Shown: positions 6,326 through 50,511 of the stretch, piece after piece
How the letters are laid out: each line of letters starts with the position of its first letter
Numbering within the stretch: position 1 is the first letter of the stretch
NCBI GenBank assembly: GCA_015501585.1
Contig: JADNRY010000248.1
Location: forward strand, 27,226 to 91,225
DNA length: 64,000 nt
Reading direction: 5' to 3'
Origin: Rhodocollybia butyracea
Lineage: Eukaryota > Basidiomycota > Agaricomycetes > Agaricales > Omphalotaceae
Notes under the pieces: generated by a model
What the model was told of the DNA's origin: nothing
Databases searched by the model: none
The model's input: the letters and a program-made list of their open reading frames with translations, nothing else
Translations under genes and position numbers: made by a program

Positions 6326-8678
6326 ATGGAGTATCGCATTGCAACCTGTAAACCAGACATGAAACCTTCCATCCACGCCTTAATCGAAGTCAAAGCTGAA
6401 TCTCTACATGATTCCGTTCCACCTCGAGTTTTCACGTTTGTTGGTCCAAAACCTCACAATTACCCGATGGTTCCTCCTGAAACTCAACCTCCAGATCCCG
6501 ATTATCATGCCCTAGCTCTGCCTCGTTTTGATCTACCTGGTTGGTTCGTCTCTTCTCTGCCTTTCTTGGGGTTTGCACCTAGCTCCAATCCTTTTAAATG
6601 TCAATTTCTACAATGTCTTGATTACAACATTGACATGTTGCCCATTGAATTGCATCACGAAAGTGGCTGTTACATTCTCAATCCATCTTTGAGAGACGAC
6701 TGGGATTCCTTAGAACGGAATATGAGAGCTTTCCTTGGCGCATGCAGGCACGTTAATCCCCTAGGATTAACCCATGATTTCCGGTTCTGGTTCTATCCTC
6801 AACAATTTGGATATTGCTTCGCTTGGGAGACAGAGAAACTGGCTCGATGGGCGGCGTCGAGATCTCGGCAAGCTTTCATTCTGCTGATAGCGGCCATATC
6901 CTTCTTTCTTAAAATGCTGTATCATATGGAAAAGAAGTGGGTTGCACTGTTTGAGAATTGTACAACTCAATTACCTGACCCAAATCCATTTTGGAGCGCG
7001 AGGCAGAATGAGTACGCCAAACTTTGTTGTGGACTGGTTCCTTCGAAATTCGAATGGCAGGAGTGTTTGCAAAAAGAGACATCCATTAGCTCGGAGTGGC
7101 TTTCTTACTTTTACCAAATCATGGAAATGCCAATGGCGGGGGTCTTCATGAACGTCAACGACCGCAGTTGCATTCCGCTGATTCCTGTGTTTCTTGAGGC
7201 TAATATGCCTTTGGTGCTGTGCTGGGGTACTCTAGAAACATGGTACAAATCAGAACTACCAAAAGCGTTGGCTCTGCTTATTTCTGCACCAAATTTGTCC
7301 AATGTTAAGTCTAACGTTGCTCCTTATGTCTTCCTGTCCGTCGTTATGGATGTCTCACGTGTCGCAAATCCTGGGCTATGCATTCCCCGAGTCACAGGTG
7401 GAACTCAACCACGTGCAAATGAAAACATTCATACATTCATCAAGCGTCAAGAGGAGCATAGGATAAAATCTATAGCCTCTGAGACTCCTGTCAACCGCCA
7501 GTCTTGACTACAACAAGAAGCAAATGCCCAGAAAGACCAACCTCCCGGCCGGAGAGGGCTTGTGTCTATTATTGGGATCTGGTTGAGGGAGTGAGAGTTC
7601 CGAACGGTGTGCTGCAGGCAGAGGAACTACAAAAGTATTTGGGAAAGATATGGACCTAACCGGCGACACTATGATTCTGTGGCTGATGAATGGGAGGTGT
7701 CCACAGATCTAGATCCAAACGATAGTTATGAGCCAGGCTTTGATGATGAGGAAGATGACATCTTTTGTCCAACAGACGATGTTCTCGATCATACTGCTGG
7801 GTGTACCTCATCCCAGTCTTATATTGACCGCCTTCATGGCCAGACACAAGTCCCGACAAGTGTCGTGCTGTTTTACGATGCTGTTGATGACATTGCCTTC
7901 CATCGTTTCGGTTTCATCGCTCCTGCTCCTCTCCCCTCTGACCGTCCAGTGGTCCTTTCCACAAAGGTATGGGGGCAGATATTAGATATGCTTGGATCAG
8001 GGCATCCTCCAAAACCTCCAATTCATAACCCTGCCTCCGAACACCAGATGTGTACATTTTTCTTCGACTTACTACGTGCGAAGGATATCTCTGAGGTACC
8101 ACAATTCTGTGATCTGGTGAATACTAAATTCAGCCCTGTTCCCCCTTTCAAGATTGATTTCATATCCGGCTACTTCCTAATTCAAGCTCAAGAGGCATCA
8201 GATGATGAACCCTTCGTGCTTGGTATTCCAAATGCCTCTACTATTCTCGAAATTGCAAGGAGAAAATGGGGGCCTAAAACCATCGACATTATGAAAGGCT
8301 TGCTCAAGGAGGGAATCCCATTCAAAACCTTGGTACCTTACAGTCACCCTCAGAAATATATAGCACCTCCGGTGAGAAGAGTCAGCGCATTAGGCATTGG
8401 CCCTGCTGGATTTTCGCCCAGAATAGAAGACTACCACGCTTATGAACACTGCTGCAATGAATACCTTTGCTCAGCCAGAGGGCAAGCAGCGCTTCTGAGG
8501 GTGGCCTTATCGCTCGACTTGGCCGAGATATCGTCAATGAAAATGATGTTTTCGATGGACCGACAGAGAGTGCTCTCACAGGAAGCGAGAAAGTGTTTTG
8601 CTTATCGGAATCGACACAAAACCATGCGTTCTGGGATGACCAGCTTACTGAAGAAGAAATAGACCTCGTTTGCGGCAC
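6326..8678 (+). pseudogene. Decayed member of a large agaricomycete family of unknown function, cut by an LTR element
   Basis: Starts at ATG 6326 and reads 393 codons to a TGA at 7505-7507. Coding then continues in other frames: ACVYYWDLVEGVRVPNG near 7560-7600, then IWERYGPNRRHYDS (7607-8500 frame), then GGLIARLGRDIVNENDVFDG to EEIDLVCGT (8500-8678). From memory these blocks, in this order, match one widespread agaricomycete family of unknown function (acidic middle part, then WDD.LTEEEIDLVCG near the C-terminus). The copy therefore carries one nonsense codon (CGA to TGA fits), about three frameshifts, and a retrotransposon inserted immediately after the VCG motif; the final part of the gene is missing. 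No enzymatic motif seen. Confidence 0.6.
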
Positions 8679-8931
8679 TGTAACGCCTCCGCCTCTCCAT
8701 AATCACCACTGACCGTATCCGGCGATACGGTCATCCTAGACGCCGCCGATAGACCAAACAGTCTATCTTATCATTCTATTTATTATTAATTATATAATAA
8801 ATCCGTTACTATAAGTATCATACGATTACTTAAGAGTCTAGTTAGTCTTTTACACCGTCGTACACACAATAGTATCCTATTTGTTGTGTTCACCGGTGTT
8901 CTTAAGGACTTTGCCCATAGGGCGCGTTATA
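8679..8931 (+). repeat. 5' LTR of the gag-only element
   Basis: Begins TGTAAC and aligns with 11771-12024, differing at roughly 8 positions. Contains a 10-base-pair hairpin at 8710-8733 (stem TGACCGTATC, loop CGGC) and a 7-base-pair hairpin at 8748-8767. Similarity between the LTRs stops at about 8931, which sets the right border; no clear primer-binding site follows. Confidence 0.75.
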
Positions 8932-9099
8932 CTTTTTTGAACATCAAAAAATTACTATTGTGTGAATAACACAAAGCTATTAGTTTAACAAGCTAAAAAC
9001 AGTTATACTACCAAGTATAACAACCATTATTCCAACTCACCACACAATCTACACAAACCCGCTCCATTTTTCCGTCCCACTATATCATTTGCTGTCTCA

Positions 9100-11418
9100 A
9101 TGACCTCTCGAAATCAATCAGAGAAGTCATATCGGAGCATGCGCGATCGCGCACCTTCCATTCGTGGTGACGTGTCACCACAATCAATCTATTCAGTCGC
9201 ATCAGCGACTCATTCCGTGCGTGCGTCTGAAGGACGGCACTACAGGCAGGACAAAAGTCCACCTAATGAACAGTATATGACTATTCGTACGACCCGAGAG
9301 GGTTTAAGTGAGATTTCTTCTGCGCTACGAGATGTAGCGGCATCACTCGACAAGAGTATGCAAGTACTCAATCGTATTCTCAATATAACTGAGAAATGGG
9401 ATGCATCTAGCATCCAATCTAATGAAGAAAGATCTTCTTCATCGAGAAACAGCAATAGAATCACTATTGCTGCACCCACACCGAGACGGCCTGCCGTCAC
9501 ACCGCTGGTATTGCACAATGCAGCACCATCTGTTCCTACCGAGGCAAACAACTTGGTACGCCAATGGCGTGAGACTGTGCCCAAGGCAGCGTCAGTCCAA
9601 CAATCACTGTTGGACAAACAGTATTCACAAGGGATGACCAAGTCACCCCGTCATGTTCCTGTATTCCGACAGGAATACGCACCAGTGTCAGTAACTATAC
9701 CGACACCCATCTACACATCCCGCATGAGACAGAGTCCCAATGCGGAGGCAGCGTCTCTGACACTGCGAGGTCCCAGGCCATTACTGGTGACCAAATCTTG
9801 CTCACCACAAAGCGCGGTGAACATTAAAAGTGAACCAAAGTTACCTCGTAACTTCAATCAGGTAGTAGTGATACCACCACAGGAAAGTACAATGTACTTC
9901 CCTACTGCAAGGGCGCCAATGGTACCCAATATTATTACACCTCCAGTAGTTGTACCAAACACTACTGGAAATCATTCCAGTATGGGACCGCAACACGGTA
10001 CCCTTCCGGTAGTTCCTACTACCATATCCATCGCCCCAGCGACACAAAGTGTTGCCCCTCCGGTAGTACACACTACCGTAAGACTGCCCAAATTGCCGCC
10101 CAGCAATGCGCCAGAGCCAAGTTCAATGCCAGTACCAACGGTATTGGCTGAGTTGCAACCACAGCCGCTTCCGTTGGGAGTAGCTAAAGATTGGATGAGT
10201 CGCATAGCGATTCAACGCCAACATAACACCAGTCTCCGAGATTTCGGATTCGTGCCATCTGGGCTTCCCAACCAAATGGTGGGATATAATGTCGACGGAA
10301 TACCCGTTGATAAATTGACTACTCCCAGAGAAATCTGGGATCGATTTTACATTCCACCCGCTGAGTCCTTTCCAGGACCAAGCAATAATGCCGGAGCAAA
10401 AGCGCCTAGCAAAAAATCCCGTGAAGGGGGGAGGAAGCACAAGAGTGCTAAATCCAAAGGCCGCAAACGCAGGCCATGGTCGGATGAATCATCTGACTCT
10501 AGTGATACCGAGTCAAATACTGACTCTTCATCTGATGCCTCTTGGCTAGACAAATTTGCTACCCGTAAGGGTAAAATTACTCCTAATGAGCGCCGTAAAA
10601 TACTGCGTTCACTTGCATCTAAGATGCGAGAAACAACAGGTGACGACGAATGTCGTTCCCGATGGAAACACAAGGTACACAAAGTGTACTGTAAACAAAT
10701 TCGAGATAAGGTAGGGAATCCTATCCCTCCCATTGAGAGCCGTAAAGCTCTTAAAGTTCCATCTCCGGAGGTCTATGACGGATCTCCGGATGTCGATGTC
10801 TTTGAGCGGTGGCTAATGTCACTTCTCCAATGGATGGTAGTCAACCGCATGTGCGGTGACGATTACGGTGCTACACGGACTGCCGTGCTTGGTATGTTTC
10901 TAAAGGGCAAAGCCCTTGACTGGTATAACGACAAAGTCGCTGGTATACACCGCACTGTCCTTAAGTGGACATTTGAAGGTGCCATCATTGGTGTCTTTGA
11001 TCGTTGCATCCAAGCAACGACCATTCATCAAGCTGCACGGCAGTTTGACCTTATTGAGTATTCACCCGATACGGGTGTGAGGGATTATTATTCCTCACTT
11101 ACACGATGGGCATCATGGATGCTCCAAACACCGGATGATGCAACAATGCGGAAACGGTTCATTGAGGGATTACCCTTCAATATTATCAGGCAACTCACAA
11201 ACGAGGGGATCGTTCCGGAGTATGCCAAATTAGAAGTGATGGTCAGAGCCGTCACACACAGTGAGGACCACATGGCCCTCACTAAATATTATGTCTCTTC
11301 TAGGAATAGAGACAATGAACTTAAATCATCAGAACACCCCGATGAGTCGGACACCGAGAACATTAAAAATGTTCTTGAGCAATCAGGAGGACACCTCCTT
11401 AAGTATCGGAAAGGATAA
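9100..11418 (+). CDS. Gag-like protein of a Ty3/gypsy-type element (no pol)
   Basis: A 772-codon ORF. Residues 1-420 are Ser/Pro/Thr-rich and unstructured. Residues about 425-490 hold a basic stretch (KHKSAKSKGRKRR) followed by an acidic Ser/Asp run (SDESSDSSDTESNTDSSSD). Residues about 560-720 look like the retrotransposon Gag domain (PF03732-like), with LKGKALDWYNDKVAG, a W-x-F-E-x-A segment, and VRDYYSSLTRWASWM followed by MRKRFIEGLP. There is no CCHC zinc knuckle and no downstream pol. Gag assembles the virus-like particle and binds RNA; here it may package its own RNA using enzymes from an autonomous relative. The reading frame is intact, unlike the neighbouring copia element, which suggests recent activity or selection. 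The coding sequence itself is full of perfect short inverted repeats. Confidence 0.75.
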   Translation: MTSRNQSEKSYRSMRDRAPSIRGDVSPQSIYSVASATHSVRASEGRHYRQDKSPPNEQYMTIRTTREGLSEISSALRDVAASLDKSMQVLNRILNITEKWDASSIQSNEERSSSSRNSNRITIAAPTPRRPAVTPLVLHNAAPSVPTEANNLVRQWRETVPKAASVQQSLLDKQYSQGMTKSPRHVPVFRQEYAPVSVTIPTPIYTSRMRQSPNAEAASLTLRGPRPLLVTKSCSPQSAVNIKSEPKLPRNFNQVVVIPPQESTMYFPTARAPMVPNIITPPVVVPNTTGNHSSMGPQHGTLPVVPTTISIAPATQSVAPPVVHTTVRLPKLPPSNAPEPSSMPVPTVLAELQPQPLPLGVAKDWMSRIAIQRQHNTSLRDFGFVPSGLPNQMVGYNVDGIPVDKLTTPREIWDRFYIPPAESFPGPSNNAGAKAPSKKSREGGRKHKSAKSKGRKRRPWSDESSDSSDTESNTDSSSDASWLDKFATRKGKITPNERRKILRSLASKMRETTGDDECRSRWKHKVHKVYCKQIRDKVGNPIPPIESRKALKVPSPEVYDGSPDVDVFERWLMSLLQWMVVNRMCGDDYGATRTAVLGMFLKGKALDWYNDKVAGIHRTVLKWTFEGAIIGVFDRCIQATTIHQAARQFDLIEYSPDTGVRDYYSSLTRWASWMLQTPDDATMRKRFIEGLPFNIIRQLTNEGIVPEYAKLEVMVRAVTHSEDHMALTKYYVSSRNRDNELKSSEHPDESDTENIKNVLEQSGGHLLKYRKG

Positions 11419-11770
11419 ACCTTCCGAATGATTTACTGGTTATTCTGACGCCCAGGTAATATGCCTTACCTGGGCATCACTACTTATCCTCAGCCCGGAT
11501 TCTCACTGAGAATCCTCATTAAGCAATACTCGGAAAACTTCCGAGTCTGCGCGTTGAACATTCGGACATTTCCGGATCAAAATCATGCTCTAGTGGTACG
11601 CCCCACTATTGTTTGATTCGGACAAGTCCGAAAATCTGATGCGCCGCATCAATTAATCCCGTACTTGATACGGGATCATTCTATGTTAAACCAAATTAAA
11701 AATGGTTTGGATGGTGATGATGTCATTACCATTTTCGATTCACATCCCTGATGTTAATCTGGTGGGGAGG
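11419..11770 (+). other. Hairpin-rich 3' untranslated region of the gag-only element
   Basis: Non-coding. Contains back-to-back perfect inverted repeats: 11450-11475 (10-base stem GCCCAGGTAA, loop 6), 11497-11515 (8), 11528-11546 (8), 11591-11608 (6), 11617-11632 (7), 11637-11651 (6) and 11656-11676 (8), then an 11-kb-scale pattern end with an imperfect stem near 11718-11740. It ends in the polypurine tract at 11761-11770, the expected plus-strand primer. Confidence 0.7.
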
Positions 11771-12024
11771 TGTAACGCCTCCGCCTCTCCATAATCACCA
11801 CTGACCGTATCCGGCGATACGGTCATCCTAGACGCCGCCGATAGACCAAACGGTCTATCTTATCATTCTATTTATTATTAATTATATAATAAATCCGTTA
11901 CTATAAGTATCGTACGATTACTTAAGAGTCTAGGTAGTCTTTTACACTGTCGTACACACAATAGTATCCTATTTGTCGTGTTCACCTGGTGTTCTTAAGG
12001 ACTTGCCCATAGGGCGCGTTTATA
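11771..12024 (+). repeat. 3' LTR of the gag-only element
   Basis: Copy of 8679-8931. Several differences from the 5' LTR fall inside palindromes. The hairpin matching 8748-8767 is one pair longer here (an A-to-G difference adds a C-G pair). TCGTACGA is a perfect palindrome here and is broken in the 5' copy, while CACCGGTG is perfect only in the 5' copy. Confidence 0.75.
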
Positions 12025-12929
12025 ATAATGTGTTCAGGCGCAAGGGCGCCTATCACTCTCGCCCCAAAACTGTATTAATGGTCATCGTGCTATTCATTAG
12101 TGCTGGGTATAGAACTGTGACTTATCATACCAGCCTGTATAATATATGTATCATACATATTGTACCTCAAGCCTCTGAGAAACCATGTATAATATGTATA
12201 CAAGTCTGAGGGTGGTCTGAGCCCTCTGAGTACTCTAAGATGGTCAAGTAGCCCGAGATGCAATTTGCCAATGAAATATTCAAAAATCCCCAGTACTTAC
12301 TAGTGGTTCACTATTCAATGCTCAAAAAGGACGAGTAGGACAGGTTGAACAGCGCGGCACATTCATTTCTTGACAGTGTGCATTTGGCTTAGTTGGCAAA
12401 GTCATGGAGCAAATCTTGGATACTGACCTAGACTGACCTGCCTTGACCTACCTCTGCGCGCGGGTTGACCTACCTTCCATAAGTTGAGCTAATCTCACCT
12501 AGAGATTGATAAGTTTGTCCGTGGGAGGCAAACGGTATGTCATGGTAGCCATTCATTATTATTATACATGTATTATATGTATAATACCTCAAAAAAAATG
12601 CCTGCGGCGCTTGTATAATACTTATTATACCTTAATTACTTACAAGACACGGAGCCTCTTCTATCATACAGTATCATACCAAGCCAATTCAATATCATAC
12701 CCAGCACTACTATTCATGTTCCTGGTATCGACCACCTTGTTTATACTCCACATATACCAGTTTGCAGTCCAAGTCCAAAGGAATTTACCTCAAGAGTATG
12801 GTTAAGGGTCAGTCTCTAACTGAAAAAGGCGCACCTTCAGCGTCTTAAGTGACAAGGTAGATTTTGCAAGCGATATCCTTTTTGGATTTGAGGTTCATCA
12901 ATCTTTTTCTTCAATTAATCCGTATAGTC
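12025..12929. other. Non-coding stretch with AT-rich palindromes between two LTR elements
   Basis: No gene seen. It holds perfect inverted repeats, e.g. 12560-12586 (TATTATACAT, 10-base stem, loop 7) and 12613-12630 (GTATAAT, 7-base stem, loop 4), and recurring TATAATAC/TATCATAC words. It may be a decayed relative of the hairpin-rich element. The last 80 bases before 12930 are probably the left part of the membrane-protein gene split by the copia insertion. Confidence 0.4.
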
Positions 12930-13276
12930 TGTTGGTATTCGGTCCGCGGTATATGGCCGCCAGTATGTACAGCTCCAATACCAAGTAGATATCAGACCCA
13001 AGTTCTTATCATTTGTTTTAACTTTTATTTCATTGATACGGATTTCTACTTATACTGTATGTATCGACGTTCCCTTCTTTTCCTCAGCCTTCATCACTTC
13101 TGGCTGAGGTATGTCTATTATACTTATGCTCTATGTCCATTATGCTCATACTGTACCTATAGCTTAGTTGTACATCGTACTAACGTGTCTCTTAGGTATG
13201 GTAATATGATTAAGCCTTCATCACTTCTGGCTGAGCTTAGTTGTACATCGTACTAACGTGTCTCTTAGTTCCAACA
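12930..13276 (+). repeat. 5' LTR of the copia element
   Basis: TGTTGG...CCAACA. Contains an internal duplication: the block CCTTCATCACTTCTGGCTGA and the block CTTAGTTGTACATCGTACTA each occur twice, also in the 3' LTR. Confidence 0.9.
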
Positions 13277-45939: not shown

Positions 45940-46500
45940 TTAAATTGATTTGAATCTCACTCATATTTTCTCTAGCTGGTGAGCGTTAGTGTGATTTAAA
46001 TATATTGGATTTGTGCTCAATCTGTCATCAACAGTGCGACGAGGTCTTTACACCTGTGAGTGCCATTTAAATCCATTTAAATCTGTTTGAGTCTCATTCA
46101 TATCTTCTACAGCAGGATTCTAAGGTGTTACTTAAATCTATTTAAATCCATTTAAATCACGATCTTTAACCGTACCACTACCCTTAGGCTTCTCTCGAGT
46201 GAGCGTTATTTAAATCCATTCAAATCCATTCAAATCTCATTCGTAGACACAGTGACTGAGCCCTTGGACTTTTCACTGGTGATTGTCATTTAAATCAATT
46301 TAAAACCGTTTAAATCTCATCTCTACCTTCATCAGCGGTGCCGATGGAGTAGTCGGTGAGATGTTCGTAGGGTTTATGACTTAGTTTCCTAGTGTATCCA
46401 TTTAGGTACATTTAAAGTAATTTAAATAGTACATAGGTTGAAAACGTTCAACATTTAAATCAAGTGGGATTGTTTCCTGCTGTATTACATTTAACGTAGG
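45940..46500. repeat. Right subterminal array of ATTTAAAT-type words
   Basis: About 20 copies of TTTAAA-type words, often paired as ATTTAAATCCATTTAAATC, in 560 bases between the transposase stop codon and the right inverted repeat. Mirrors the left array at 26870-27210. Confidence 0.7.
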
Positions 46501-46662
46501 AACTTTTTGATGTTTTCCTCGCTTTGTGTTGTGCCCTGAGGGACACCAGCAGTCCGCAAGGACAAGGGAACCTAGCCCTCGGAGAAAGGATACGAAGATC
46601 GTAAAGGAGCGCCCGTGGGCGCTCCGTATCGGAGTTTACATTACATTACGACAACTCAATGG

Positions 46663-46764
46663 ACCGGTTATATGCTTTGCCGGCCACTGCCTAGGGCAAC
46701 ACCGTTCCACTGCGTTAAACGCAGTTGCAAATCAACTGCCACGGTCCTTGCCCGCTGTGTGAAT
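46663..46764 (-). repeat. Right terminal inverted repeat of the KDZ element
   Basis: Reverse complement of 25812-25913 with a few mismatches; the internal palindrome lies at 46709-46725. Confidence 0.85.
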
Positions 46765-47119
46765 TAGAAACGTAACTAGAGCAGACCAAATCCAGACAAT
46801 GCCGATCCACCCATCAGATACTATGCAAGTTGGTGAAACCCCAGTCACCAAGACTTGAAATCTCGGTGCAAGTCTTTGAGCTGTGAAGCTTGTGAAGTTA
46901 CACCAGGGAAAGCGAAAGGGGAAGCAACGCCGTTCGAAGCGGTTCCTCCAACTACAGAGATGATACGGCACGCTGGTTCCTATCGTTGGACTCGTTTCCG
47001 ACAACAGCAGTCTGCGGGGACAAACGACTGGCGCTCCCAAAAGCTATCGATGGAGAATTGAAACTTGAAGGGCTGAAAATGAGACTGGCCGAAGTGTTGT
47101 TTACGCACTTTCATAGGCC

Positions 47120-47396
47120 TCAAGTGGCGAGGCCGTTGAGGAAGGAGCTGTGTGTCTGATTGTCTATGTTAGATAGATGTGGAGTTGATGTTGGGCGGCG
47201 CCAGCAGATGCCTCGATGAACCCATGCTGTAAGGGGATTTAGTTAGCAATGCACATCGCAAGGGAATGATTATTGGCAATATATTGGCAGAACTCACATG
47301 TATACGTGTCAAGAAAAAGTAGGAGCACTCACCAACGCGAATTTGGAGGGGGGGCGGCATGGCGAAAGGCTGACTCGAACGATCGGAATCAGACAT
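47120..47396 (-). CDS. Small hypothetical protein
   Basis: ATG 47394-47396 (MSDSDRSSQPFAMPPPLQ). An intron with a GTGAGT donor and an ACAG acceptor near 47230 joins AWVHRGICWRRPTSTP, and the gene stops at 47120-47122. About 58 residues. The good splice signals are the only support; it may be a gene fragment. Confidence 0.3.
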
Positions 47397-47397
47397 T

Positions 47398-47906
47398 GAC
47401 GGCGCAATGAGAGGCCTAACATAAGCAACAGTGAAGGAGAGTAAAGTTCAAGCCATACAAAAAGGACTCCGGCCACGTGAATTCAGAAAAAAAGCGCGAA
47501 AATTTCCGCCAAAAAAAATCCAGAGCCCCTAAGACACTATTTTCTTTCTGGTATTTTCATTGAGAGCAGAAAATGCTTTGACCTTGCATCCTGCTTCTGG
47601 AATGCTTGCGAGAACAAATACGCTATACTAGTAGGTAACTGTAGGAGAGGAAATATGCCAAAATCGCGCCCCAAAATACGCTATTCCGGACAAAATTTAG
47701 GAGGAGTTTCTGGGGGCCTGTGGACGGGTTTTGAACATTGAACGTTGAACAGACGACGTAGTTTTTTTTTCTTTTGGTTTCTGACGACGTCGCGTGAGCG
47801 CCGGGTGAGCGCTCAAGCGCTCAGTTCAACGCACACCAATCTTTGACAATCTCTCCTTCTCTCCTTTCCTTCGGTGGATTATTTGTCTTTTAATCTTACA
47901 GATTAC
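47398..47906. other. Upstream region of the kinase-like/DUF6699 gene
   Basis: Non-coding. GAACATTGAACGTTGAAC at about 47737-47755 resembles runs upstream of the gene at 23349 and at 37982. Confidence 0.35.
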
Positions 47907-50511
47907 ATGTCAAGCCAAACAGATAGCTCATCTGATCATGCTGGATCGGTCAGTATTATACTGGTATTCGCTCAGTTATGTCTGCCAGCACTAATTCAAA
48001 TTCTCTTGCTTGTTCTGCCTGTCAGATATGGAGTGCTGTGAAGTATGATTTCAGATTCTTCCAAATACTTCGTTTTCTGAATAATATTGAACGATAGATC
48101 CTCATTTTTCGCTAATGCAAATCGCTTTACCATAAACGGAGCAACCTTTCAACTATTTTGTGGATCAGAAGGTATGTGCTCTATGAAGGCAGTTGTCTTT
48201 GTTTAAAGTACCTTTAAGATAGTGAACCTGGGCAAGCGATTTATGTTGATGGGATTCCTGTGGTGAGCATTAAATGCTGCGCTGATTAAGTGTTGCGTTT
48301 AACTTTTAACTACGAGATCCCTGCAATACACCTTGAAGAACAAATACGCGAACGAAAAGGGTCACGGTTTTCAATTGCCACGATACCCTTCTCAGAGAAA
48401 AAGGTAATTGTTCAGGTATTCGAAGGTCCCCAAGCAAATCAAGTGGGTAATTGACTGAGCGCTCTCCGGGTGCTCCAGCCCTGCCGGCCAAGTAATGTAC
48501 TGACATACAATCTCAGTTGTGGAAAGAAACACTGCGTTATTCTCGATGTATGGTGTAAGTGTGGATGCTTTGCAGCCGAGACATAACAGCCATTCATAAT
48601 TAACCGACAGAAATGCGCATATCCTTGGCATTGTTGGGATATCAAAACCCGCTGCCTCTGATGATGATGTGCACTATATCGCATTTGGCGGACGTGCGTT
48701 TTCTGCAGTCTTACCATTTTTTCTTGCTCACATATCTCACGCAGGCCATGAAAATGATTCGCATTATCTACTCGCGGAGGCGTTGCGGAAAGGCGACAAA
48801 GAGATAACAACAATAGGATCACAGATAGTGAATAAAAATTCTGTGCATATTCTCTGCCGTGCTAACAACATATTCCACAACTTAATAGGTGTACGGAGCT
48901 TCGGTGAAAATCTTTCTATTGTGCATCTTCCACTATTCATTTTATGGAAATCTGGGTTGACGTACTTAGTCTGGACTGGATTACCTTTTTTCAAGCCGGA
49001 TCATCTCTGTGGAAGATATCAAAAGCACAGTATGTTGACTTCGGCCCTCCATTAAAAATGGCGACCATTCACTCTGCTTCAGAATTTCGAGGTATTCTCT
49101 GACAGGCATGGACACACTGCAATTGTTTTTGCACCAGATATCTTGCCTAAGGCTCCAGATTTTACAGTGGCAAACACAAAGTCAGTTTTGGATTCTTTGA
49201 TCTTAGAGGTACGCTGCACATTATCCCTCTGGTACATTAGCGTATCTGATTCTCTCCGATCTTACATATAGGTATTCAAAGAAGCAAATTATGTCATCTA
49301 CAGTGAGTTGGCGATGATGACGCAAGAACATTGCAATGGGAGGTTATGTCTTTTACAGGAGAGAAAGTCGAACGGCACGATGATGATCTCCAAAGTAACG
49401 AAGATCTTGAAAGAAATCATGCCACTGGAATCTCACCTCGACACCATTCCCAACTAAATTCCGGAAATAGCACTAGCACCCAGGATACTGAGAGCAATAT
49501 GGACGCAAATCCAGCCAGTATTACGGTTTGTCGGAGGGAGATTGTTTGGAGGTCTCTCAATTCCGATCTGGCTTTATCAGAAATATCCAAACTTTACCGA
49601 GACCTACTGCGCATCCACTCATCTCTTGACAACACTGGCCAATATTTGATTGATTTCCCCCGCCGCTCTGGCGAAAGAAAGTCTGCAACCCAGCATAAAT
49701 GCAAAGGTTACATTCGCGAGGAAATTACCCTCACTCCAGATGCATTCCGCAATAGTGTTTCTGTTTTTGAAAAACCATCGCTCAATGAAATTTGTGGGAT
49801 GTGTGGCGAGGTTGTGCAGTATCAGGAATTAGGTGAATCAGAAGATGGGGAAGCTGCGGGCAACGGGGAACCCAATAGTGAAGGGAGCCCGTTGATTGGT
49901 AAACAATGTGGTTTTCAACAGTCAACTGATGAACACTGACGCTCGCTTCAGTAAGAGGCCTAGCTGTGGCATTGAGCTGGCCTCTAACAGAGCCTGGTCG
50001 CACTTCTGCTCGGAAGAAACGGCCAATTATTTGCTTTGACATTGCATTCGACCCAAGGAAGAGCCGGGGAGTGACCGTGCAAGCCTTTCCTGATGTAGCG
50101 CATAGAGTGGATATTCCCTCCGACACGATTAGATTACCCGCATCGTCGCACTGTATACTCACTGAGATGCAGATTTTCCTAGACGTGGAAGATTTTCGCC
50201 GTTGGCCTGTCAAAGTCAAGCGTAAAAGTGGTATCAGATGCCTGGATGTTTTTTACACTATCTACGAGACGTTTCAACGTACCCTGAACCCAGAGGACAT
50301 TCGTTCTTTCGGTGAGGTTCATATCAAGTGTTGCGAGAGGTTTTGCTAACAGTATTGCATCGATTCACCAGGATTACCGCTATATAATAGGCAGCATGGT
50401 ACTATGCGGCGGGTTGATCTTCTACGAGGCAGACGTTTCTTCCGTGGTATCGTACGATCTGGGGAGGATTGGATGTTGCTGCTGGACGATTATACATCTT
50501 CACAACATTAA
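47907..50511 (+). CDS. Multi-exon agaricomycete protein: kinase-like N-lobe remnant plus DUF6699-like C-terminus
   Basis: ATG 47907 (MSSQTDSSSDHAGS). Exons up to 49300 give fragments such as GATFQLFCGS, RNAHILGIVGISKPAASDDD and AEALRKGDKEITTIG, which resemble agaricomycete proteins with a degenerate kinase-like N-lobe. 49331-49900 includes REIVWRSLNSD, QHKCKGYIREEITLTPDAFR and NEICGMCGEVV. A GTAAAC...TTCAG intron joins this to VRGLAVALSWPLTEPG. The end (FRRWPVKVKRKSGIRCLDVF, YETFQRTLNPEDI, HGTMRRVDLLRGRRFFRGI, DDYTSSQH) looks like a DUF6699 domain. One splice near 50336 does not keep frame in my reading, so a frame error or different border is possible. Function unknown; kinase activity unlikely because the catalytic HRD/DFG motifs are not seen. 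Confidence 0.5.

What the first reader, a model, noticed from the sequence alone, without database searches (positions are those of the whole stretch)
8679..12024. Gag-only LTR retrotransposon saturated with perfect short hairpins
Across LTR, leader, coding sequence and 3' UTR I counted at least 30 perfect inverted repeats with stems of 6-10 bases and loops mostly of 2-6 bases. Examples: 8710-8733, 9002-9021, 9164-9181, 9595-9615, 9661-9678, 9838-9854, 9964-9981, 10008-10023, 10061-10078, 10323-10340, 10675-10689, 10903-10917, 11001-11020, 11063-11077, 11357-11375, 11450-11475, 11656-11676. With equal base use, about four 6-base stems with 2-6-base loops would be expected in 3 kb, and about one of 7 bases or more. 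The pattern ignores the coding/non-coding boundary. It could be a mark of intramolecular template switching by a reverse transcriptase (turning imperfect hairpins into perfect ones), or selection for a highly folded RNA used in packaging or protection.
Basis: partly seen in the sequence, partly recalled or inferred. Interest (0 to 1): 0.9.

Follow-up and report, generated by a model that had tools for sequence, protein, structure and literature searches.

The report
Fungal retrotransposon built of RNA hairpins
A family of fungal jumping genes carries a perfect small hairpin about every 70-80 bases along its length, protein-coding parts included, and its evolution suggests that this folding is kept by natural selection rather than left behind by copying errors.

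Summary
The element (8679-12024) holds 47 perfect hairpins against 5.8 expected. The excess survives synonymous-codon shuffling and is absent from the neighbouring copia element. It belongs to a Ty3/gypsy clade in this genome: gag-only families A (window) and B and autonomous gag-pol families C and C'. 15 of 15 gag pieces (five lineages) show it; six more distant Ty3 loci do not, or only weakly. The folding-energy excess (MFED) is 36-42%, against 15% for SARS-CoV-2 and a published maximum of 23.4%.

Template switching is not supported. Differences between lineages spread over both arms more evenly than chance (one-arm cases with three or more changes: 0 of 28, 0 of 16, 2 of 95), and hairpin births among copies are not significantly above chance. 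Selection fits better: stems evolve more slowly, paired sites covary, short stems are GC-richer, overlaps are avoided. Individual hairpins turn over while density persists, as in genome-scale ordered RNA structure (GORS) of RNA viruses. Against this, G·U pairs are tolerated no better than A·C. The purpose (Gag-driven packaging, or shielding) is inferred. No DNA of relatives from other fungi was found.

The parts
8679..8932 (+). 5' LTR (254 bp), with 4 hairpins such as 8710-8733 and 8778-8802
   Evidence: LTR starts TGTAACG and ends GTTATA
8933..9099 (+). leader, including the tract just after the LTR where the primer-binding site should lie (in A folded into hairpin 8933-8951)
   Evidence: the tract is shared with family B and, for its first bases, C
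9100..11418 (+). gag reading frame, 772 aa, no Pfam match above cut-off, 27 hairpins
11419..11770 (+). 3' untranslated region, the densest part (8 hairpins, 22.7/kb)
11771..12024 (+). 3' LTR (254 bp), with 4 hairpins
11450..11475 (+). longest single hairpin outside the LTRs (10-bp stem, 6-nt loop)
11001..11020 (+). coding hairpin whose site is shared across gag lineages, with covariation (TCGTTGC..GCAACGA here, TAGATGC..GCATCTA in C and most C' pieces)
10675..10689 (+). coding hairpin GTACAC-AAA-GTGTAC shared with B and most C' pieces; a paired substitution in L070 (whose loop has a gap)

Best explanation
The window element and its Ty3/gypsy clade are under selection to keep their genomic RNA folded, from end to end, into short local Watson-Crick hairpins. 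What is kept is the amount of local folding, not particular hairpins: stems are lost by point mutation, kept by purifying selection and by paired changes, and new ones arise from near-hairpins. In this respect the element works like the genome-scale ordered RNA structure (GORS) of positive-strand RNA viruses, at 1.5-1.8 times the highest value in the paper read and 2.4-2.8 times that of SARS-CoV-2. Most probable use (inferred, about 40% within this reading): a string of short hairpins lets the clade's own Gag, the one protein shared by gag-only and autonomous members, condense and package the RNA. Next (about 30%): compact local folding hides the RNA from antisense pairing, RNA interference or nucleases. 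Shown here: density, clade restriction within this genome, slower stems, covariation, stability trade-off. Inferred: that RNA rather than DNA is the folded molecule, and the benefit.
For: Hairpins 47 against 5.8 by dinucleotide shuffles; A gag, B gag, C gag, C pol and C' pol frames 27/28/46/49/38 against 4.7/4.8/6.9/7.9/5.9 by synonymous shuffles. Clade-restricted within one nucleus: 5 of 5 near RT loci 8.9-15.4/kb, 6 of 6 far RT loci 1.7-4.3/kb; 15 of 15 gag pieces, from five lineages, 9.5-12.5/kb. MFED A 42, B 36, C 42, C' 39% against 1% for copia and -1 to 14% for six far Ty3 loci; 74-78% of predicted pairs span <=30 nt against 43-60%. Stems defined in another sub-group change more slowly: A 47/755 against 210/2066 sites, P=0.001; L049-L051 10/286 against 75/997 (stems from C), P=0.015, and 7/243 against 77/989 (stems from L053), P=0.004; C-L053 22/521 against 103/1536, P=0.043 (the two L049-L051 rows are not independent). 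Both-changed pairs that stay paired: gag 44/80 against 34% null, P=1e-4; pol 23/35 against 38% null, P=0.001 (ordered pairs, not independent). Variants shared by copies are depleted in stems (43/584 sites against 267/2097, P=0.0002), private ones are not (56/584 against 223/2097, P=0.49); hairpin-breaking shared variants 42 against 65.3 expected, P=0.001. Stability trade-off: stem GC falls from 0.52 (5 bp) to 0.40 (9 bp) while shuffles stay between 0.39 and 0.42; AT-rich 4-bp stems are below chance. Overlapping hairpins avoided, 16 pairs against about 65 for random placement. Strand signs: loops A-rich 0.416 against 0.317, G-poor 0.143 against 0.22; the + strand folds about 1.1 kcal/mol per 120 nt better than its complement in A, B, C, C' (my pooling).
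Against: G·U is tolerated no better than A·C: interior mispairs 18 GT, 31 AC, 24 other, the AC:GT ratio that composition predicts; shared stem-breaking variants 19 GU, 19 AC, 5 other; cross-lineage one-sided changes GU 45/AC 36 in gag, 26/37 in pol. Classic RNA-level selection should spare G·U. The + strand advantage is only about 10% of the effect, and copia shows a non-significant one of the same sign. The shared/private contrast tested directly is weak: stem against spacer P=0.047, and P=0.22 when ambiguous sites are added. Two further covariation comparisons show no excess: C' against L070 10/21 against 48%, and 93-94% identical pairs 3/3 against 67%. Loop length 3 is the most enriched class, which RNA energy rules alone do not predict (recalled). 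No structure was probed.
Confidence: 0.6

Rival explanations
1. Intramolecular template switching: the clade's reverse transcriptase (or the nascent cDNA folding back on itself) copies one arm of an imperfect hairpin from the other, so perfect hairpins accumulate as a mutational by-product.
For: Stems are strictly Watson-Crick and mispairs look like neutral transitions. Short loops are favoured, broadly falling from 3 to 10 nt, as expected for fold-back. The trait follows an RT clade and ignores coding boundaries. Correction of existing hairpins would also slow stems and create covariation.
Against: Changes confined to one arm are rarer than chance: dispersion 0.30-0.45 against null 0.6-0.8 for hairpins with >=3 changes; one-arm-only 0/28, 0/16, 2/95 (with >=2 changes 4/43, 1/20, 3/101). 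The gag comparison is old enough for later changes to blur such a mark; the pol ones less so. Births: private 14 against 15.3 expected, shared 26 against 20.0, P=0.11. Of 118 substitution clusters (copies share ancestry), 9 put two or more changes in a hairpin's stem and 2 lie in one arm only. No stem exceeds 12 bp in A, B or C. Hairpin codons in RT match other fungi no worse than the rest.
Confidence: 0.15
2. Selection on the single-stranded cDNA (or on DNA generally) to fold, for instance to protect or compact cDNA, so that pairing must be Watson-Crick and G·U on the RNA strand brings no advantage.
For: A·C and G·T mispairs behave alike. Three-base loops are the commonest class, often C-AxA-G; stable DNA triloops of this kind are recalled, from no call.
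Against: Loop composition is strand-asymmetric and the + strand folds slightly better. Related Ty3 loci L054-L056 carry moderate structure that is better on the + strand, typical of RNA. The whole element is transcribed (recalled for LTR elements), so it has no DNA-only part as internal control.
Confidence: 0.12
3. Dispersed packaging signals: each hairpin is a degenerate recognition site for Gag, as in MS2 or satellite tobacco necrosis virus (a special case of the best explanation).
For: Gag is the one protein shared by A, B and C, and few relatives turned up: 1 hit for A Gag and 4 for C Gag, while 5592 proteins matched the RT of C. Loops are A-rich, with A at triloop positions 1 and 3 in 48 and 42 of 82.
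Against: No loop motif beyond A-richness is visible in the position tables for loops of 3-7 nt. Spacing is not more regular than random in A, B or C; only C' is more even, P=0.017. Gag binding untested.
Confidence: 0.25
4. Composition or alignment artefact, simple repeats, or host-wide bias.
For: One other bin of the window (46 kb) and the 600 bases downstream of the element are raised, with AT-rich repeats.
Against: Dinucleotide and synonymous-codon controls; host DNA and copia in the same window near background.
Confidence: 0.01

Closest known systems
Genome-scale ordered RNA structure (GORS) of positive-strand RNA viruses
   Same: Hundreds of consecutive local stem-loops; high MFED; poor conservation of exact pairs with 'inexact covariance'; less diversity at paired sites (PMC7642675: abstract passage, other passages and section 12 seen).
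   Different: LTR retrotransposon, not an RNA virus; MFED 36-42% against 15% (SARS-CoV-2), 7-9% (HCV) and 23.4% (Bulbul coronavirus HKU11, highest recorded in that paper); perfect Watson-Crick stems without G·U preference.
Dispersed RNA packaging signals (MS2, STNV, parechovirus, HBV)
   Same: Many degenerate short hairpins across a genome, tied to a capsid protein (search listing with starts of abstracts only).
   Different: No common loop recognition motif found here beyond A-richness; protein binding untested.
Yeast Ty3 and Ty1 genomic RNA structure
   Same: LTR-retrotransposon RNA with local structure (PMC11381356: abstract, section list and section 29 read).
   Different: That section reports a mosaic in which stable, highly structured regions make up to 30% of Ty1 and Ty3 RNA (by SHAPE); here all 52 non-overlapping 350-nt windows of A, B, C and C' fold better than their shuffles (prediction only).
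Quasipalindrome-associated template-switch mutation
   Same: Would turn imperfect into perfect hairpins (PMC7202029: start of abstract in the search listing).
   Different: One-arm conversions, its mark, are rarer than chance here.

Membership tests
Ty3/gypsy LTR retrotransposon (clade of families A, B, C, C') | RT, RNase H and integrase of the Ty3 type in the autonomous member | tested here: met
   C (L048): RVT_1, RT_RNaseH, Integrase_H2C2, rve, SH3_Tf2-1
Ty3/gypsy LTR retrotransposon (clade of families A, B, C, C') | LTRs and target-site duplication | tested here: met
   A LTRs of 254 bp; 5-bp duplications readable in 10 of 13 A copies examined, but not around the window copy; A, B and C share the LTR start and similar ends
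Ty3/gypsy LTR retrotransposon (clade of families A, B, C, C') | pol in the window copy itself | tested here: not met
   Only the gag frame lies between the LTRs: a non-autonomous, gag-only member
Genome-scale ordered RNA structure (GORS) | Folding energy well below shuffled controls throughout the genome | tested here: met
   MFED 36-42%; lowest of 52 350-nt windows +16%
Genome-scale ordered RNA structure (GORS) | Exact pairs poorly conserved, density conserved | tested here: met
Genome-scale ordered RNA structure (GORS) | Lower diversity at paired sites | tested here: met
Genome-scale ordered RNA structure (GORS) | Genome of a positive-strand RNA virus | tested here: not met
   LTR retrotransposon; hence 'works like', not 'is'
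Genome-scale ordered RNA structure (GORS) | RNA-level pairing that tolerates G·U (expected of RNA structure; my criterion, not the paper's) | tested here: not met
   G·U and A·C alike
Dispersed packaging signals | Shared recognition motif in the loops | tested here: not met
   A-rich loops only
Dispersed packaging signals | Hairpins bind the capsid protein | not testable with these tools
   needs CLIP or a binding assay
Template-switch (quasipalindrome) mutation | Multi-base changes confined to one arm | tested here: not met
   0 of 28, 0 of 16, 2 of 95

The most novel reading that the evidence does not exclude
A retrotransposon lineage whose genomic RNA is, end to end, a chain of short Watson-Crick hairpins that serve as dispersed, sequence-degenerate assembly units for a rare Gag. 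The code is read as structure only, so proteins and hairpins are written over each other for the whole 3-10 kb.
Probability: 0.25. Interest if true: 0.9.

Novelty: new variant of a known kind. Interest (0 to 1): 0.76.

Why it matters
Whole-genome RNA folding is a puzzle in RNA viruses: its strength is measured, its purpose is not. Here a fungal retroelement clade shows it at 1.5-1.8 times the highest value in the paper read, next to sister Ty3 lineages in the same nucleus that have moderate folding or none. Comparing sister clades in one host separates element-encoded causes from host-wide ones, which viral comparisons seldom allow, and gag-only, gag-pol and non-folded relatives form a ready-made series for packaging tests.

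Tried and rejected
Template switching: tested by births and deaths of hairpins among copies, substitution clusters and arm dispersion, and rejected as the main source. Classic RNA wobble signature: sought three ways (and 39 with its rerun 75), not found. Codon phase of stems: the phase with wobble-wobble pairs is lower (49 against 66 and 76), a mild effect only. Protein cost of hairpins: of 400 RT codons of C, those mostly in stems match the majority of 16 homologues in 63 of 79 and those outside in 212 of 297; 24 codons touching a stem by one base were left out of that contrast. Regular spacing: not in A, B or C. Rfam: 0 matches in 8000-13000 at gathering scores. Literature: the listings of searches showed no report of hairpin-saturated LTR elements; this covers only the held library and those words.

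Dropped rows and corrections: hairpins with alignment gaps were left out of arm counts. Sites covered by fewer than 12 copies were left out of polymorphism counts, and sites with a major allele under 60% from the birth/death counts. Searches used 31 copies besides the window, but two of these rows, L003 and L021, turned out to be the same insertion (overlapping places in list); one search repeats the counts without L003 (30 copies), and its numbers are the ones given. L021 and L022 lie on one contig and share many alleles; both were kept. At least 150 gag matches exist, so these copies are a part. Searches used 20 copies; the low stem divergence is biased because stems were chosen in the window copy, and it is not used. 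L053 looked 65% identical by protein because its frame is broken; by DNA it is 92% identical to C.
Full report
WHAT IS THERE. The window copy (family A) is an LTR element with LTRs at 8679-8932 and 11771-12024 and one long frame, 9100-11418, of 772 codons. Pfam gives nothing above cut-off for that frame. It has at least 150 gag relatives in its own 95.6-Mb genome. I call it gag because it is homologous, over its C-terminal part, to the first frame of family C. In C a CCHC knuckle (17.6 bits, below its cut-off of 20.8) lies in that frame, and RT, RNase H and integrase of the Ty3 type follow in the next. A, B and C share the LTR start TGTAACGCC, similar LTR ends and at least the first bases of the tract after the 5' LTR, so C is a plausible helper for A and B (inference). 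RT relatives named by sources include Mycena, Phanerochaete, Trametes and Agrocybe, and one C-Gag relative is from Lentinula, so it is probably an agaricomycete fungus (inference; the classification of these genera is recalled).

There are 47 perfect hairpins against 5.82 expected (maximum 14 of 100 shuffles), and 17 stems of 8 or more against 0.36. With synonymous-codon shuffles, gag A has 27 against 4.7. Copia beside it has 10 against 7.9, and window 18-46 kb has 57 against 49. The 1000 bases upstream hold none; the 626 bases downstream still hold 6, then none to 14 kb. The 20 A copies fetched by place carry 27-53 hairpins per roughly 3.8 kb, flanks included.

IT IS A CLADE TRAIT. Family B (3 loci) and family C (7 loci) are rich too, C through gag and pol. 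Around the RT, 5 of 5 loci of the clade (L049-L053) have 8.9-15.4 hairpins/kb, while 6 of 6 loci with RT 36-42% identical have 1.7-4.3/kb (identities). Two of those six (L055, L056) are mildly raised: 15 against 5.8 and 15 against 7.5. The 15 gag pieces, from five lineages down to 60% DNA identity (A, B, C, C', L070; ten are C' pieces 90-99% alike), have 9.5-12.5/kb. As all these elements share one nucleus, a host-wide mutational or selective cause would not pick out one clade (inference).

STRENGTH. In 350-nt windows the excess of folding energy over dinucleotide shuffles (MFED) is 42% for A, 36% for B, 42% for C and 39% for C'. Copia is at 1%, and six other Ty3 loci range from -1 to 14%. The paper PMC7642675 (passages and section 12 seen) gives 15% for SARS-CoV-2, 7-9% for HCV and 23.4% as the highest recorded. 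It used a different dinucleotide-preserving shuffle and overlapping fragments, so the comparison is close but not exact. L054, L055 and L056, at 10-14%, fold better on the + strand than on the complement, which is ordinary RNA-level structure.

SELECTION OR MUTATION. Template switching predicts changes confined to one arm. Between lineages the differences are instead more evenly split over the arms than chance (dispersion 0.30-0.45 against 0.6-0.8). With at least three changes, one-arm-only cases are 0 of 28, 0 of 16 and 2 of 95; with at least two, 4 of 43, 1 of 20 and 3 of 101 (ordered pairs, so not independent). Among 669 variants in 30 copies plus the window, births do not differ significantly from expectation (private 14 against 15.3; shared 26 against 20.0, P=0.11), and deaths are depleted among shared variants (42 against 65.3, P=0.001) but not clearly among private ones (49 against 56.2, P=0.19). 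Shared variants are rarer in stems than in spacers (43/584 against 267/2097 sites); private ones are not (56/584 against 223/2097). The direct contrast of shared to private counts is weaker (P=0.047, or 0.22 with ambiguous sites added). With stems defined in a different sub-group, which avoids ascertainment bias, stem sites change at 0.4-0.6 times the spacer rate in four comparisons, two of them on the same pair of sequences (P 0.001-0.043). Paired sites that both changed stay complementary in 44 of 80 (gag) and 23 of 35 (pol) cases, against 34% and 38% for complementary pairs outside stems. Two other comparisons in the same call show no excess: C' against L070, 10 of 21 against 48%; pairs 93-94% identical, 3 of 3 against 67%. 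Examples: at one gag site C, B and C' carry three unrelated stems, and at another A and C differ at several paired positions, all compensated.

SIGNS OF A FOLDING THRESHOLD. Stem GC falls with stem length (0.52 at 5 bp, 0.40 at 9 bp, 0.43 in the six of 10 or more; shuffles 0.39-0.42 for 5-9 bp). AT-rich 4-bp stems are below chance (0.4x), while stems of 5, 6 and 7 bp with 3 or 4 GC pairs are enriched about 3, 8 and 14-23 times. Enrichment broadly falls with loop length, from about 18x (3 nt) to about 2x (8 and 10 nt), with 9 nt at about 5x. Hairpins avoid overlap: 16 overlapping pairs in A, B, C and C' against about 65 for random placement. Individual hairpins nevertheless turn over: of 35 C hairpins in pol that align without gaps, 6 are unchanged in C' at 77% identity and one more is intact through covariation.

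WHAT DOES NOT FIT. G·U pairs should be spared if RNA stability alone were selected. They are not: mispairs inside stems are 18 GT, 31 AC and 24 other, with the AC:GT ratio that composition predicts, and polymorphism and divergence agree. The + strand is better folded than its complement by only about 1.1 kcal/mol per 120 nt out of about 10 (pooled by me from the four rows). Loops are A-rich and G-poor, which is a strand sign but a modest one. Selection on cDNA folding, or a requirement for strict A-form helices, cannot be excluded.

PURPOSE (inferred). The trait goes with a Gag for which searches of 5.8 billion proteins returned 1 hit (A) and 4 hits (C) at E<=0.001 (only the candidates sharing most words were scored), while 5592 of 7965 scored candidates matched the RT region of C. 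The gag-only families A and B keep both gag and the folding. I therefore rank Gag-driven condensation and packaging first and shielding from antisense or RNA interference second. Neither was tested. No shared loop motif was found, so this is not filed as a packaging-signal system.

VERDICT. A real, strong, clade-wide feature that works like GORS but is not a member of it by definition. Template switching is disfavoured at the time depth sampled. The spread beyond this genome is unknown for want of DNA from relatives.

Noticed in passing
8679-8932 and 11771-12024: The window copy has no target-site duplication (GGCAC before, ATAAT after), while 10 of 13 other A copies examined show a readable 5-bp one; it may be a recombinant of two insertions.
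   Followed up: partly
8933-8951: The tract just after the 5' LTR, shared with B and in its first bases with C, does not begin with the TGG typical of a tRNA primer site (recalled) and in A lies in a perfect hairpin. Self-priming or an internal tRNA site is possible.
   Followed up: no
12025-12650: Just downstream of the 3' LTR six more perfect hairpins lie in 626 bases, several of them TATA/ATGTAT-rich; perhaps a piece of another element.
   Followed up: no
L042 6424-6426 and L048 6436-6438 (oriented coordinates): The autonomous family C has an in-frame stop between its 1349-codon first frame and pol, with the same flanking residues in L041, L042 and L048; stop-codon readthrough is possible.
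   Followed up: no
L054, L055, L056: More distant Ty3 loci show moderate folding excess (MFED 10-14%) that is stronger on the + strand; L057-L059 and copia have less.
   Followed up: partly
46001-48000: Raised hairpin count, partly from ATTTAAAT repeats, plus a 9-bp GC-rich hairpin at 46606-46625.
   Followed up: no
Family A copies: Variants among copies are mainly C-to-T and G-to-A (212 and 194 of 669), as expected for CpG decay or a RIP-like process.
   Followed up: no
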